From positions 62,001-126,000 of the forward strand of contig NCSJ02000015.1 in assembly GCA_002812745.2 (NCBI GenBank): a stretch of 64,000 nucleotides of DNA, read 5' to 3'. The stretch is from Scytalidium lignicola (taxonomy: Eukaryota; Ascomycota; Leotiomycetes). Under the pieces are notes generated by a model. The model worked only from the letters and a program-made list of their open reading frames with translations, was not told the DNA's origin and ran no database searches. A program made the translations under genes and the position numbers. Position 1 is the stretch's first letter. Each line of letters starts with the position of its first letter. Shown piece by piece: positions 2,107 to 33,400 of this stretch.

Positions 2107-2883
2107 CTATTTCTGTGGTGGAACCCCAAAATTGTTCGTTTGCTGGCCTGAGAAGTAGCCTTGTTGTAGACCGTGGTTTTGACTTCCAGCAAATGTGATA
2201 TTAAAGATCTGTCCCCCAGCAGACTGCCTAGACTTGATAGCGGCGCTGAGCTCAGGGTCTTGTTCCGCGACAATAGGCGCAATGAGCGACACATTCTGGT
2301 CCGATGCTAATTGAGATCCATCTTCCTCGCATAGTCGCTCCCGCTCAGGCTGAGCCGCGGGGAACAATTCAACCAAGCCATTGACCAGTTCCGTTGTATC
2401 TTCGATTAACCGATTAAGATATTTCTCCTTGTATAAAGCCCATTTTGTCTTCTTCAATATGTTTCTTGGATTAAACCGCTTTAGCGATAGCATCTTCAGC
2501 TTCTTATGCAAGGAAGCTGTAGCCTTATCTAAGTCGTTTACAGTATCGTCAACATTTGAATCATTCCCCAGAGGCTTCAGCTTTGCTGATACTCGTTCGG
2601 CATCTGTAAACAATTCTACTATCTGGCGAAGTAATTTTTCGGCCTGCTCATGATCATCTTGGGACCCGATGATCCCTGGTAAAGTTTGCATGCCTTCTTC
2701 TACTCGATCTAATCCTATCGACTGGCCCCATCGAGCAAGACGCAATCTCGAAATGTCGAGCTTGAGAATAGCAGTCTGAAAATCTTTGTCGAAATTTCGA
2801 GCAACTTGGATGTACTCGAAACACCGGACAGCATCGTTGAAGGCGCCTAATATCGCGAATGCAAATCCAGCAGCCTCAGTCAT
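2107..2883 (-). CDS. HeLo-domain (HET-S-like) cell-death effector with C-terminal amyloid-type motif
   Basis: Single exon, 258 residues. I chose the ATG at 2883 because the sequence from MTEAAGFAFAILGAF onward has the form of a HeLo domain N-terminus: a hydrophobic first helix, then CFEYIQVAR, then a long helical stretch with LKLDISRLRLARWGQ. The HeLo domain fills about residues 1-220. In the HET-S family it is a latent membrane-disrupting domain activated when a C-terminal prion-forming segment converts to amyloid. Here the last 36 residues (223-258) are Gly/Asn/Gln-rich, with the blocks FNITFAGSQNHG, QQGYFSG and TNNFG. The same blocks occur at the N-terminus of the divergent NLR that starts 373 bp away. 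That pairing, rather than the tail alone, supports the assignment. The exact motif class (sigma-like versus HRAM) needs a profile search. The upstream in-frame ATG at 2964 would add 27 atypical residues. Confidence 0.85.
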   Translation of the reverse strand: MTEAAGFAFAILGAFNDAVRCFEYIQVARNFDKDFQTAILKLDISRLRLARWGQSIGLDRVEEGMQTLPGIIGSQDDHEQAEKLLRQIVELFTDAERVSAKLKPLGNDSNVDDTVNDLDKATASLHKKLKMLSLKRFNPRNILKKTKWALYKEKYLNRLIEDTTELVNGLVELFPAAQPERERLCEEDGSQLASDQNVSLIAPIVAEQDPELSAAIKSRQSAGGQIFNITFAGSQNHGLQQGYFSGQQTNNFGVPPQK

Positions 2884-3255
2884 CTTCCTTGTCGTCAGGA
2901 TTAAAATGTATACATTTCGAATGTTTGAATGTTTGGAGGGAATATGAGAGGGAAATGAAAGCAAAAAGATAAGAGCTGTCTACCTAAGCTCGTAAGGCTC
3001 TGCGGCGCTGTATCAACAGAGGCTTCCATTTTGGGTCGGTGGCTTGGCCTCTGCCAATCATCGAATGACACACTGTTTACACATTCGCACCTGACCCACT
3101 TTGAGGCTGAGAGCGCTGTGATCGAGGCTATGTACATCGCCTCATGTTTGAACTACAATACACCTCGATGCTTGACGTTATGGTATAACTTTGACAGGAT
3201 TTGAGAACGGTAATAAGTGACCAAAGCGCCTGCAAGCACGATTCTTGCCAACGGC
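2884..3255. promoter_or_regulatory. Shared divergent promoter of the HeLo effector and the NLR
   Basis: These 372 bases separate the two start codons, which face away from each other, so both genes must take their proximal promoter from here. No operator is recognised. Co-regulation is inferred from the arrangement and was not observed. Confidence 0.5.
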
Positions 3256-5990
3256 ATGGCGGGCGTTTTCACAGCCGCTTTCCCCGGTTCCAATCACGCT
3301 CAACAAATCGGCCAGAGCAATGGTCCGATCACGAACAATTTTTATTCGAGTGGCAATGGTAAGGGAACCTGCTTAGGATTAACAATGTTGACTGAGACCT
3401 TTCTTGTAGGCTACGACAACAATGATATCAAGAACCAACTTCACAAATCACCGGCTAAGAGTAAGTAGGGATTCTTATTTATGACTGTTGGAAGAACAGG
3501 TGAATTGAAATTCGAATAAAATCGAGATTTTCTGGTATTGTCTTGTTATATTAGACGTTAGAGAAATTAATGCCATAATTCTCTATTACATCAAATGGAT
3601 ATTTTAGGGATTCGTCGATATACTTGCATTCCGGGTTGCTTAAGAGATGAAACTGACGAGAGCCACTAGAAAATTTTCATTGGAGGGTCCCTCGATCAGT
3701 CAACCCACATTTCACTGGGCAAAAAGAGATTCTTACCACGCTTTGCGAGCAACTGTGTAACACAGAGATAGAAGAGCAGAAAAGATTCATTATATATGGA
3801 ATGGGTGGTTCTGGGAAAAGTGAACTCTGTTTGAAATTTGCCGAGGAGAACAGAGAGAGGTAAGTTGCCAAGGTGTAGAAGACGGGGGTTTGTCATTAGC
3901 TAATGCCACATCACAGTTTCTGGGCAATATTCTGGGTGGATGCCACCGATGACGGAAGCATTAAACAAGGAATTATTGATTCCGCTAAAGCAGTACGTAA
4001 AGAGGAAATGAGCTACGAAGATGGTAAACTATGGTTTAGCAATCTGGATAAATCCTGGCTTTTAATCCTTGATAATGCGGATAATATAAATATCGACTAC
4101 TCCGAATTCTTTCCATCTGGGAATTATGGAACGATTCTCCTTACAACACGCAATAAGGAGTGCGACATTTATAATACTGTTGGGAGTTATGAATCTGGCA
4201 AACTTGCATCTGACGATGCTGTAACACTTCTCCTTATATCAGCAGGTATTAAAAAAGAACTCTGGCCGGATAAATGGGAAAATGCAAAAAATTTAATTGG
4301 GGATGAAGTATTGGCACAACATGCATTATCAATTACTCAAGCTGGGGCATTTATCAGACAAGGTCTTTGCAAACTAGAGAACTACGGAGAAATGTTCGAG
4401 AAGCAACGTAAAAAGCTGTTGGAATATCGACCAAAGCAAGCCAAGTCTATCTATGGCGATGTTTACTCTACTTTCGAAATATCTGCGGGCGCAATGGAGA
4501 ATTCTACCAAACAGGAATGCTTGGACGGGCTCAAGCTTCTTGAGGTGCTTGCATTCCTCCATCGAGAAGGAGTCCCAGAGGAGCTGTTTACTAAGGCGTG
4601 GAATCATGCTTTGCAAGTTAAAAAAGAAAAAGAAAATAACGACATAGGGCAGCTTTCTCTTTGGCATATTAACCATTTAGAAAGTGTCTTGCACGAAGGT
4701 ACGACTCCTGCAGAATTGGATCTGGTTAGGCTACGACAAGCACGTCGGGTCCTTGAATCCTTTTCGCTGATCAAGATCCATCCTGAAACTCAAGATATCT
4801 CTATACATCCACTTGTGCATGCATGGGCGAAAGACCGACTACTGTTAGATTCGCAGATTCGAGCGTGGGCTACGACAGCCTCGATTTTGACGCTTTCCAT
4901 CGAGACCTTAGATTACCAAGAGTTTTACAACAAGATTGAAACTCATGTTAAGTCTTGCTTGCATCTTCAGCAAGAAGATGTCTATGTCATCGCCCAGTAT
5001 CCCCCTCTCGAAATTGACCGAACTTTTTATCGTTTGGCATGGATGTTGTATTACAACACTAATTCCGACCTGGCAAAAAAACTCGCGAATCGTCTCATGT
5101 CAAGGGTCGGACTCGAGATTCCGCCGCGGTCGTGGAATTGGCGGTGGCTCGTGTATTTGCTTGCCTCGTGCAAATCCGGGACAGAAAGCCCCGAAGGCGT
5201 AATCTTACTACTGGAAGATGTCCTGGCATTCGACGAGGAAAACAACCTGCCTCCTACTGATCCTAATCATTTGAGCGCTCGCGAAGCACTGGGCAGGGAA
5301 TACGCGCGGATGGGGCAGCAGCAGCAGGCCATCGGGATTCTCGAAGACGTCGTCCGAATTCAACAAGAGACACTTGCTCTAACACATCCACATCTTTTAT
5401 CATCGCAACATGAGTTAACATGTGCATACATAGACTATGGTCAACCTGACAAGGCCATCAAGTTACTGTACAAAGTCGTGCAAATTAGTCAAAACACACT
5501 CGCTCTCACACATCCAAGTCTTTTAGCATCGCGATATGAGCTAGCACGTGCATATTCACAAATTGGCCAACTTGAGAAAGCCATTGAGTTATTGCATGAA
5601 GTTGTGCAAATTAATCAAAAAACACTCGCTTTAACACATCCACGACTTTTAGCATCGCAACATGAGCTAGGACGTGCATATTTAGAAATTGGCCAACTTG
5701 AGAAGGCGATTGAGTTGCTGCACGAAGTTGTGGAAATTAGACAAAAAACACTCGCTCTAACACATCCAGATCTTTTAACATCGCAACATAATCTAGCAGT
5801 GTCTTATTACAGATGCGGCAAATACCAGGAAGCGCTGTCCATCGCCCAGAGAGTAGTTGAAGTTAGAGGAACTTTACAACCTGATAATCGTGATCGACAG
5901 CTGTCAGAGGGGCTTCTTGCTATATGCGTATCAGCTCTGAAGCAAGAGAATGCCAACAACTCTGGAATTGCTGAGAGTGACGAGAAATAA
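3256..5990 (+). CDS. NLR receptor: N-terminal amyloid-type motif, NB-ARC, TPR repeats
   Basis: Model: exons 3256-3358, 3410-3460, 3670-3859 and 3917-5990; 805 residues. All introns are GT-AG; intron 2 has CTGAC just before its TAG. The ATG at 3256 is the first in frame after a TAA. Residues 1-33 carry the motif VFTAAFPGS-NHA-QQIG-SNG-ITNNF, which aligns with the C-terminus of the neighbouring HeLo protein. Then come HWRVPRSVNPHFTG, the P-loop GMGGSGKS (about 95-102), the Walker B region SWLLILDNAD (about 161-170) and ILLTTRNK, all standard NB-ARC parts. Residues from about 560 are TPRs, four of them nearly identical. Fungal NLRs of this plan sense a ligand through the repeats, oligomerise, and pass an amyloid fold to a HeLo partner. 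The exon 2/3 join is the least certain. Confidence 0.85.
5310..5815 (+). repeat. 126-bp tandem repeat encoding near-identical 42-residue TPRs
   Basis: The sequence ACACTYGCTYTMACACATCC recurs at 5370, 5496, 5622 and 5748, exactly 126 bases apart. Each unit encodes one 42-residue TPR of the form TLALTHPxLLxSQHELxxAYxxxGQxEKAI. Units 2-4 are the closest to each other. High DNA identity between units points to recent duplication or concerted evolution. Confidence 0.9.
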
Positions 5991-30421: not shown

Positions 30422-33400
30422 TTACCGGCCGAAGATTCTTTTAAAGTTAAAGCGTCTTGATGCGCCACGATTGCCCTTGAGGGCTAAACGTAATTTCTTG
30501 AGCTCGTCCCCAAATGCGATTTGAAGCCATTGATCATTTAAAATCTTCGCTTCGATAAAGTCATCCATTTTACGAGTCCTAGCGGCACCATGAGAAAGGA
30601 AGGTCGTGAGGATAAGGAACCAATCACGACATGTGTCCTCTCCCTCTTGAGTAAGAGGGCGAGCAAGAGAAACTAGCTCTGGGACACAAAGATCAACGAA
30701 TGTAGTCCAGACCGAATTTTTCAAATTGAATGACTCTGGTTTCTGGTGTGGCAGGGAGCGGGTCCGTGCATTTGGATCTGCGCCATGTTCAAGAAGTAAC
30801 GCTACACATCTAGGGCTTGGTGTAGCTGGTCTGCTTTCGAGGAACCAGTCTTCCATGTCGGCCAGCTTCTGCAGGGACAAGTTGTAGAATCTTTCTATGT
30901 CGGCCTTTCTCTGCGGGGAGAGGTAGAAGGATCTTTCCATGTCGGCCTTTCTCTGCGGGGAGAGGGAGAAGGATCTTTCCATGTCGGCCTCGCCCTGCAG
31001 GAAGACGGAGACGGAGTTCATATCTCTTTTTATCGCCCGAAGAAGTGGGCTCATGCGGTCAATGGTTGCCTTCAGTGAAGGGCGCAAACGTTGACTATTC
31101 AGTTGTGCCTCGACAGAAAAATCAAAGCCACAATAGACAGTTAAATTGAGAAAGACATTTTCAAAAGGATAAAGAAAAAGCTGATCGCTCAAATTTCGGT
31201 TGAATTTATTCTTCCCATTGTAGTCAATAAACTGACAAAAGGTACGATGTAGCTCGTCCATGATCATTTTGACCTGTTCAATGTCTGTCGCCTTCCACGC
31301 GAAGAAAGCAGTTGAATATATTAAAAACCAGAATTCTCCGACGTTAATTGCCGGTTGAGAAAACTTTAGATGCAGGAGGAATGACTTGCTGAGCGCTAGT
31401 TCCGCATTGAAAGATGTTGGAGTACCAGTAAGTAATTTCTCCCAGATATTCGGTTTCTCCAGCCAGTCCCTCACTGATCTGTGAAGATAGCGTACCGTGG
31501 AGTGTCTAGATATAGAAACATCCATATAAATTTTCGAAGGCCTGTAATCAAGATTCAGCTTGTGTTCTATAGGTGGTTGTGCTAAGGCGGCATACGGTTT
31601 AATTACGAGATCTCCCACGTCTATATCCCACTCCAAGTCAGGCATAGGATTTCCAACCTCTAAAAGACCCTTGCATCGACTATTTAAGCGTCTTGCCATG
31701 ATTTTAATTTTATAGAGAGCTTCATCTTCCATCATGGGAGTGATATTCTCGGTCTTCGCTCTTGTAATATCGTATTCGTCTGCAAAGTAGAAACGAAGGA
31801 GAGACAGAGGTTCTAAACTAGTGCGGCACGCGCGGTTGATCTGGAATAGTTGAGAGGCATGGCTGAAGTGAGAAGGCTCTATGCTGTCAAGTATCTTCTG
31901 AAAAAGCCCTTCAAGATCGCCTGGTATGGTGTCTAACCGTACTTGGAGATCCGATATCCTATCTCCACTTGAGAGGCCTTCCAGCAACGACTGAACTACC
32001 AGATGGACCCATAGGAAAACACCCGATGCCCTCTCTGAAACGCTACTTATGAGGTCTTGGGCAAACTTCTCCTCATGTTTTTGGATTTCTGAAAACATGG
32101 AGTTGCCCTGGAATTTCTCGCTGATAAATAATTTGATATCTGGCTCGGTGAGGTCTTGAAGCCTAAGGCTTGGGACTGTCCTGAACTCTTCTTCAAACAC
32201 AACCCAAGGGCGACTCGATGTGCATATCTTGATTTGCGGTGAGGTGATGATATCTTTGAAAAGGTCGATAATATCCGTAGGTTTTCCATCGAACTCATCT
32301 AAACCATCAACAAAGAGGCAGAGTTTTGTTTCTTCAACACAGGCTTGTTTAAGCGCTCTGAAAGCTCGTCGAAGCTCCGGAAAGCTGAAATCATGGGGCC
32401 TCAGACCGAAAATTGCGTACATCTCCCAATCTCCAGGGAATAAAGAGGCAGCAAATGAAGGCTTCGAATACAAAATTTGACAGAGTAACGAGCGTAAAAG
32501 ACCTATTTGTGACATCTGCAAGCTGGTTCCGGAATTCCAAAAAAAGAATCCTGCTATAACCAGGCCCGATGTTGAGGCCCAGGTGTTAAGATTTTGAACC
32601 ATGCGTGGATCTCGATAGATGTATTTCATCAATGTTGACTTTCCGGAACCTGCTTTTCCTGTGATCCAATAGATGTCACTGTCACTTTGAAGCCAATCGA
32701 TAAAGCTTGACCAAGGCTTTTGTTCGGTTCCAGGGTCATGAAAGATCCATTCGAACGTCTTGCGATGCGCCTCCGCAATAGTATCCTCGCGGTCTTTCAT
32801 ATCGCCAAATCTTAAATGGTTAGTGACCAGCTTGGCAAAACGACGAATTGATTCTGATTCACTGTACGCGATGGAAGTCACCGCAGGATTAGAACTATCA
32901 TGTACCTTGTGCGATGCGTGGATTGCGAGCATAAGGTCATCTCGCCAATGCCTTTCCTCTTCAACGAAAGAGAGGAAGGTTTCTCCAATAGCTTTCTCAT
33001 ACTTGTGGGCTGCCAGCTGCGATCGAGCTGACGCTTCAACTTGCCCCCTAAAGTATCTTTAGCTCTTCCCCCCTCATAGCTGAAGAGACCCACCTACCGA
33101 AGAGACCCAAGGAGAAAGGGGACTAGGTCTTGCCTAAGCTTTTGCAGTTGTGATACTAAAGATTCAATGTGCCGTCGCTCGAGTTGAGCCGAAATGGCCA
33201 GCCGAAGACTTTCCCACTTCTTAAGGTTTCGGGAAATGCTGAGCTCCTTCAAGACGGCCAAGAGCTCTGTTCCTATCCGTCTACACTCATTGGCGATCTT
33301 GCGCACCTCAATATCGTTGGGGGTGAGAGGGCGATCCGTATTCTCCTGCCTGAGTGACCCGTCTAGATTATTGCATAGTTTCACCAGGCTCGTTGTGGAT

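What the first reader, a model, noticed from the sequence alone, without database searches (positions are those of the whole stretch)
2107..5990. Divergent HeLo effector / NLR pair sharing a terminal amyloid-type motif
Seen: the HeLo protein ends with FNITFAGSQNHG-LQQG-FSG-TNNF and the NLR begins with FTAAFPGS-NHA-QQIG-SNG-ITNNF, aligning with one gap; the genes start 373 bp apart in opposite directions. Known: in HET-S/NWD2 and in sigma-motif clusters, an NLR N-terminal segment templates amyloid folding of the same motif at the C-terminus of a HeLo partner, causing cell death. Inference: this locus is such a two-gene signalosome. Its motif variant may be new, since the two copies differ at many positions while keeping Phe, Gly and TNNF spacing.
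Basis: partly seen in the sequence, partly recalled or inferred. Interest (0 to 1): 0.88.

Follow-up and report, generated by a model that had tools for sequence, protein, structure and literature searches.

The report
Fungal receptor–killer gene pair, PP motif
Two neighbouring genes of the mould Scytalidium lignicola look like a self-killing protein and the immune-type receptor that would switch it on through a shared prion-like tag; the arrangement is already known from other fungi, and here the two halves may have different evolutionary origins.

Summary
A 258-aa HeLo protein (minus 2883-2107) and an 805-aa NB-ARC/TPR NLR (plus 3256-5990) start 373 bp apart; the tail of one resembles the head of the other (13/27 identical; 1 and 3 of 20,000 shuffles score as high). 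The species is Scytalidium lignicola. The motif is of the published PP class (Pfam Ses_B, RHIM-related), not sigma or HRAM. A profile trained without window proteins ranks the HeLo ORF first and the NLR first-exon ORF second of 1,588 six-frame pieces (74.9, 14.3, next 4.6 bits). HeLo-PP beside NB-ARC/TPR-PP was published in 2012: a new member of a known kind. The mechanism (NLR oligomer templates amyloid in the HeLo tail, HeLo domain kills the cell) is inferred from Podospora. Less ordinary: the HeLo gene groups with Chaetothyriales sequences while the NLR's nearest relatives are leotiomycete and carry a phosphorylase domain instead of the motif; and the HeLo motif is closer to NLR motifs of Endocarpon (22/28) and Exophiala (20/25) than to its neighbour's. 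Within-pair co-variation is therefore not seen.

The parts
2107..2883 (-). HeLo effector gene, one exon, 258 aa
   Evidence: Pfam HeLo PF14479 1.2e-39; HET-s/HET-S N-terminal domain by sequence 1.9e-24 and by predicted fold 2.8e-10, TM 0.71/0.86; start codon shared by homologues
2128..2208 (-). C-terminal PP motif of the HeLo protein (residues 226-252)
   Evidence: Pfam Ses_B residues 228-249 (over the cut-off); GLQQ core in 26 of the 35 HeLo proteins (tails printed)
2884..3255 (.). 372-bp divergent intergenic region between the two start codons
   Evidence: coordinates
3256..5990 (+). NLR receptor gene, 4 exons (3256-3358, 3410-3460, 3670-3859, 3917-5990), 805 aa
   Evidence: gene model; same protein in the record B7463_g1450
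3265..3342 (+). N-terminal PP motif of the NLR (residues 4-29), in exon 1
   Evidence: pairwise alignment and shuffles; own PP profile 14.3 bits, E 0.0024 over the six-frame window; no Pfam match
3738..4235 (+). nucleotide-binding domain (NB-ARC residues 75-221), with an intron; Walker A GMGGSGKS at 3798-3821
   Evidence: Pfam NB-ARC 7.9e-5, 22.5 bits against cut-off 23.5; P-loop read directly
4731..4841 (+). DUF7779 match (residues 387-423) after the nucleotide-binding domain
   Evidence: Pfam 2.6e-6, 28.0 bits against cut-off 27
5226..5879 (+). TPR array; 126-bp period, copies 73-75% identical in DNA within 5310-5798
   Evidence: Pfam TPR_12, TPR_10; repeat search

Best explanation
The locus is a two-gene PP-motif amyloid signalosome. 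The TPR array of the NLR senses an unknown ligand; the NB-ARC-type domain then oligomerises; clustering lets the N-terminal PP segments (residues 4-29) fold into an RHIM-like amyloid; this templates the same fold in the C-terminal PP segment of the HeLo protein; the HeLo domain is released, exposes its hydrophobic N-terminal helix, goes to the plasma membrane and kills the cell. Shown here: the two genes, their domains, the similar terminal motifs, a predicted HET-S-like HeLo fold. Inferred from published Podospora systems: oligomerisation, amyloid, templating, membrane damage, death.
For: HeLo domain and fold. Effector tail is Ses_B/PP. No Pfam domain in the NLR's N-terminal ORF or 35-residue start. 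With a profile trained without window proteins, the ORF of NLR exon 1 is the second-best of 1,588 six-frame pieces. The NLR start matches a PP NLR of Endocarpon (69; 0 of 20,000 shuffles), although that NLR was found with a query that also held the window NLR's motif. The residue aligned with HET-S His33 is Asn, where HET-s has Pro (alignments; role of position 33 from PMC3321046 passages). The most hydrophobic 15-residue stretch is residues 1-15, in a predicted helix 2-23. HeLo/NB-ARC-TPR PP pairs are published, and in P. anserina PNT1(1-31), from an NB-ARC/TPR NLR, activates its PP effector (PMC7885112 passages).
Against: Pfam does not recognise the NLR motif. It has Ala for a core Gly and one residue less. 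The HeLo motif is closer to foreign NLR motifs (22/28, 20/25) than to its neighbour's (13/27), and the NLR start does not resemble the canonical PP NLR P0083 above chance (4,951 of 20,000 shuffles). Shuffles reach the NLR's profile score in 3, 4 and 7 of 20,000 cases for three profiles. No transcript, amyloid or death data exist here. Adjacency of a homologous pair could not be checked in any other species.
Confidence: 0.75

Rival explanations
1. Orphaned or decaying pair: both genes read open, but the NLR's motif has drifted too far to template the HeLo tail, so the link is lost.
For: Core Gly to Ala and a one-residue deletion in the NLR copy, while the HeLo copy stays close to its Chaetothyriales homologues.
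Against: Both reading frames are open; one Gly, Asn, Gln and a second Gly are invariant in the 19 motifs that I aligned, this one included (segments chosen by me); P. anserina and C. globosum PP regions at 36% identity still cross-seed, though less efficiently than like with like (PMC7885112 passage).
Confidence: 0.15
2. The HeLo protein and the NLR each work with other partners (another NLR, or another PP effector of the genome).
For: Two other PP-like tails exist, a HeLo remnant on C179 and an ORF after a phosphorylase-type end on C309. Signalling between non-adjacent genes is suspected for the established motif families (PMC9815663 sections). My short-motif searches see close copies only: neither found the other window motif, so a diverged NLR motif elsewhere would be missed.
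Against: Those two searches found no second close copy of either motif (one match each). The NLR motif does not resemble the C309 or C179 tails above chance (5,200 and 5,664 of 20,000 shuffles reach the score).
Confidence: 0.07
3. Chance similarity of two Gly/Asn/Gln-rich termini.
For: Short, compositionally biased segments; no Pfam match on the NLR side; a few shuffles score as high.
Against: Shuffle and six-frame controls; position at the termini of divergent neighbouring genes; NNFY..G beyond the motif shared with the Endocarpon NLR.
Confidence: 0.03

Closest known systems
HeLo/STAND PP-motif pairs of Arthroderma otae and A. gypseum (Daskalov et al. 2012, PMC3321046)
   Same: HeLo effector with a C-terminal PP motif next to an NB-ARC/TPR NLR with an N-terminal PP motif (passages read).
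   Different: Published consensus FxGx(x)NxGLQLxGxNxGxL; here GLQQG in the effector and AQQIG in the receptor. I did not fetch their sequences, so no direct alignment was made.
pnt1/hellp of Podospora anserina (PMC7885112)
   Same: NB-ARC/TPR NLR with a PP motif in its first 31 residues, adjacent death effector with a PP tail (passages).
   Different: HELLP has a HeLo-like domain, this effector a HeLo domain (PF14479).
nwd2/het-S of Podospora anserina
   Same: HeLo effector, divergently transcribed NLR neighbour, terminal amyloid motif (passages).
   Different: The HET-s motif is a 21-residue repeat present twice in the effector and the NLR is NACHT-WD; here one PP copy and NB-ARC-TPR.
sesA/sesB/het-eN sigma cluster of Nectria haematococca
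   Same: Terminal motif shared by NLR and effectors (passages).
   Different: The sigma motif is a threefold repeat of GxGxQFN/GGTQN submotifs; these are absent here.

Membership tests
PP-motif NLR/HeLo amyloid signalosome | HeLo or HeLo-like death domain in the effector | tested here: met
   PF14479 1.2e-39; HET-S fold
PP-motif NLR/HeLo amyloid signalosome | PP (Ses_B) motif at the effector C-terminus | tested here: met
   9.9e-5, 22.6 bits, just under the cut-off 23.2 by hmmscan; 27.5 bits, over the cut-off, in the genome scan
PP-motif NLR/HeLo amyloid signalosome | adjacent NLR without an N-terminal effector domain | tested here: met
   373 bp between starts; no Pfam match in the N-terminal ORF or the first 35 residues
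PP-motif NLR/HeLo amyloid signalosome | PP motif at the NLR N-terminus | tested here: met
   own profile 14.3 bits, E 0.0024 in the window; 0 of 20,000 shuffles against the Endocarpon NLR. Against: no Pfam Ses_B match; chance-level against P0083
PP-motif NLR/HeLo amyloid signalosome | G-phi-Q-phi-G core with flanking N | tested here: inconclusive
   GLQQG and AQQIG: Q and the last G kept in both, one hydrophobic position replaced by Gln in each, first G replaced by Ala in the receptor
PP-motif NLR/HeLo amyloid signalosome | motifs more alike within the cluster than between species (a tendency reported for sigma-type clusters, not a definition) | tested here: not met
   own pair 13/27; HeLo to Endocarpon NLR 22/28, to Exophiala NLR 20/25
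PP-motif NLR/HeLo amyloid signalosome | amyloid/prion formation, cross-conversion and cell death | not testable with these tools
   needs experiment
sigma-motif system | threefold GxGxQFN/GGTQN submotifs (Pfam NACHT_sigma) | tested here: not met
   single motif without these submotifs (read from the sequence); no NACHT_sigma match listed
HRAM/HET-s system | 21-residue HET-s repeat, two in the effector | tested here: not met
   one motif copy; no HET-s Pfam match listed

The most novel reading that the evidence does not exclude
A rewired signalosome caught young: a HeLo-PP gene of Chaetothyriales (black-yeast) type entered a leotiomycete, and a resident NLR whose relatives carry an in-cis phosphorylase domain took up a PP-coding first exon and became its receptor. 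The effector keeps the left half of the pseudopalindrome (NHGLQ) and the receptor more of the right half (QIGQSNG), so the two may stack better with each other than with themselves, as in a heterotypic RIPK1-RIPK3-like amyloid.
Probability: 0.12. Interest if true: 0.65.

Novelty: new member of a known kind. Interest (0 to 1): 0.4.

Why it matters
It adds a PP-type, RHIM-related pair in a leotiomycete and points to a group of GLQQG motifs in HeLo proteins of Chaetothyriales and in NLRs of Exophiala and Endocarpon. It offers a natural test of how far receptor and effector motifs can diverge and still signal, and, with a phosphorylase-bearing paralogue in the same genome, of how NLRs switch between an effector in the same protein and one reached through an amyloid motif.

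Tried and rejected
HRAM: no match listed. Alternative NLR partner in the genome: the Endocarpon-type motif finds only this HeLo gene and the NLR motif only this NLR; since neither finds the other, these searches cannot exclude a diverged motif elsewhere. A search with the whole Endocarpon NLR (70 matches at E up to 1e-10) gives TPR NLRs, the best 40% identical from residue 55 on and no listed match starting before residue 48; at that threshold a separate motif exon could not have appeared. The predicted C-terminal strands of the HeLo model (227-232, 237-242) have pLDDT near 50 and are not used as evidence. Two weak Ses_B matches on C11 and C380 (E 1.7 and 4.5) were fetched and not followed.
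Full report
What is there. The minus-strand ORF 2883-2107 encodes a 258-aa protein with a HeLo domain, closest among solved structures to the HET-s/HET-S N-terminal domain by sequence (1.9e-24) and by predicted fold (mean pLDDT 75, pTM 0.74; Foldseek 2.8e-10, the only four matches with E up to 0.001 being HET-s/HET-S). The plus-strand gene 3256-5990 encodes an 805-aa NLR: short N-terminus, P-loop and NB-ARC-type domain (22.5 bits, just under Pfam's cut-off), DUF7779 match, TPR array. The public record B7463_g1450 of Scytalidium lignicola, marked partial, has the same protein; its annotation was made with AUGUSTUS (whole text of PMC6256649), so the first exon still lacks transcript support.

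Is the shared motif real. NLR residues 4-29 align to HeLo residues 226-252 with 13 of 27 identical columns. Of 20,000 shuffles of the NLR's first 51 residues, 1 and 3 reach the observed score. A profile was built from 26 motif segments outside the window (listed): 23 of the 34 HeLo homologues P0002-P0035 whose tail fitted a motif pattern that I wrote (11 dropped, some truncated, some variant, some without a motif) plus three NLRs. Over 1,588 six-frame pieces of the window it puts the HeLo ORF first (74.9 bits) and the NLR first-exon ORF second (14.3 bits, E 0.0024), the third at 4.6. Against shuffles of the NLR N-terminus, 3, 4 and 7 of 20,000 reach the score for the full, HeLo-only and NLR-only profiles. 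Among the first 60 residues of 122 NLR-search hits it ranks fourth, after Endocarpon P0156, Exophiala P0157 and Wetmoreana P0083, which are in the training set of the full profile; the order is the same with the HeLo-only profile, where none of them is used. Many of the 122 are fragments that start inside the NLR body.

Which motif. Pfam Ses_B matches the HeLo tail and, weakly, the N-termini of P0156 (0.0022) and P0157 (0.00034), but not the window's NLR. PMC8086366 equates Ses_B with PP (passage). The published PP consensus is FxGx(x)NxGLQLxGxNxGxL (PMC3321046 passage) and its core resembles the mammalian RHIM (PMC7885112 passages). The HeLo copy keeps F.G..N.GLQ and then departs; the NLR copy keeps F.G.N and QIG..NG but has Ala and Gln where the consensus has Gly and Leu. 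In an alignment of 19 motifs that I selected, one Gly, Asn, Gln and another Gly are invariant. Against this, the NLR start and that of P0083 align no better than chance (score 29, 4,951 of 20,000 shuffles), while Endocarpon P0156 gives 69 (0 of 20,000) and Exophiala P0157 48 (30 of 20,000).

Relatives of the HeLo protein. The search gave 35 proteins; 26 of 35 tails contain GLQQ (printed) and 8 of 35 carry a precomputed Ses_B. Thirteen of 35 bear an organism name. The nearest named are Rhinocladiella similis (75%) and Exophiala species (60-68%), Chaetothyriales; none of the thirteen names is a leotiomycete as far as I know (Exophiala xenobiotica, Rhinocladiella similis and Lithohypha looked up, the rest recalled). 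In a tree of 29 of the 35 (five rows under 220 residues and P0034 left out) the window protein falls in a nine-row group with Exophiala and Rhinocladiella (support 89/88, below the star mark), inside a 23-row clade (100/100; midpoint root) whose seven other named rows are Exophiala, Rhinocladiella, Lithohypha and one Pyrenula MAG; 15 of the 23 rows are unnamed. Transfer from that side is therefore suggested, not shown.

Relatives of the NLR. The search gave 543 proteins, 120 listed. The nearest with an N-terminal domain are Phialocephala subalpina P0037 and an S. lignicola paralogue P0039, both leotiomycetes, with a phosphorylase-type N-terminus (precomputed PF01048 for P0037; 20.1 bits, under the cut-off, for P0039). 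Homology of the window NLR starts at residue 49 in P0037, 48 in P0041, 52 in P0048 and 53 in the paralogue's DNA, that is at exon 3 (residue 52); it starts at 40 in P0065 and at 7 in P0083. The paralogue's DNA aligns from window 3678 (74% over 186 bp). So exons 1-2 stand where several relatives have an enzyme domain. This is the in-cis/in-trans alternative discussed in 2012 (PMC3321046 passages), seen between two genes of one genome; which state is older is not decided, since P0083, a more distant NLR of the same type, also has a PP start.

Co-variation. A query made of natural motif segments, scored on its first 170 residues, found two further NLRs, P0156 EPUS_00073 (Endocarpon pusillum, 2.6e-3) and P0157 LTR92_010265 (Exophiala xenobiotica, 0.041), besides the window's own (3 proteins with E up to 10 among 877 candidates). 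E. xenobiotica thus holds both GLQQG HeLo proteins (P0006, P0010, P0025) and a GLQQG NLR, at species level; adjacency was not testable. The window's HeLo motif is 22/28 identical to the Endocarpon NLR motif and 20/25 to the Exophiala one, but 13/27 to its neighbour's. This is against the tendency of motifs to group by cluster reported for sigma-type systems, and in line with recent re-pairing or a loosely constrained receptor motif. Within-pair PP identities of 32-48% are reported for P. anserina and C. globosum, so signalling remains plausible. In the own genome, short-motif searches found one match each (the HeLo gene, the NLR exon); they miss each other, so they show only that no close second copy was found.

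How it would work. As in PNT1/HELLP and NWD2/HET-S: ligand, NLR oligomer, amyloid seed of N-termini, conversion of the HeLo tail, membrane attack by the HeLo domain. Nothing beyond anatomy was shown here. The residue aligned to HET-S His33 is Asn, where HET-s has Pro, which fits an active effector.

Verdict. A well-formed PP-type pair, ordinary in kind. In print: the paper search for PP motif/HeLo/amyloid/Exophiala (8 papers held at least 3 of 4 terms; the six with 'PP motif' had no occurrence of Exophiala) and for Scytalidium/HeLo/NLR/amyloid signaling (15 papers, 10 listed, 0 occurrences of Scytalidium in those 10) showed no earlier report of this locus; supplements could not be read, and the library holds open-licence papers only.

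Noticed in passing
L029:5470-5832 (contig C179): 120-aa ORF with the C-terminal part of a HeLo domain and a PP match (Ses_B 0.0056) beside ORFs that look retrotransposon-like to me; possibly a truncated second HeLo-PP gene.
   Followed up: partly
L030:4715-4948 (contig C309): ORF with a PP match (Ses_B 0.0063) just after an ORF that looks like the end of a phosphorylase domain, near an ankyrin-type NLR whose own N-terminus looks phosphorylase-like (by eye).
   Followed up: partly
L048 (contig C104:63200-68600): Paralogue of the window NLR (B7463_g8648) with a phosphorylase-type N-terminus instead of the PP motif.
   Followed up: yes
window 30422-33058 minus: Another NLR-like ORF: NPHP3_N plus DUF7791.
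   Followed up: no
window 5310-5798: TPR copies at 126-bp spacing are still 73-75% identical in DNA.
   Followed up: no
P0089, P0093, P0094 N-termini (NLR hits): Short N-termini with a VQIGD core that looks RHIM-like, on the same NLR type; P0117 has VHIGD. Possibly another PP-like family.
   Followed up: no
genome G000: 150 HET-domain (PF06985) matches scored out of 228 candidates, a lower bound: a large incompatibility-type repertoire.
   Followed up: no
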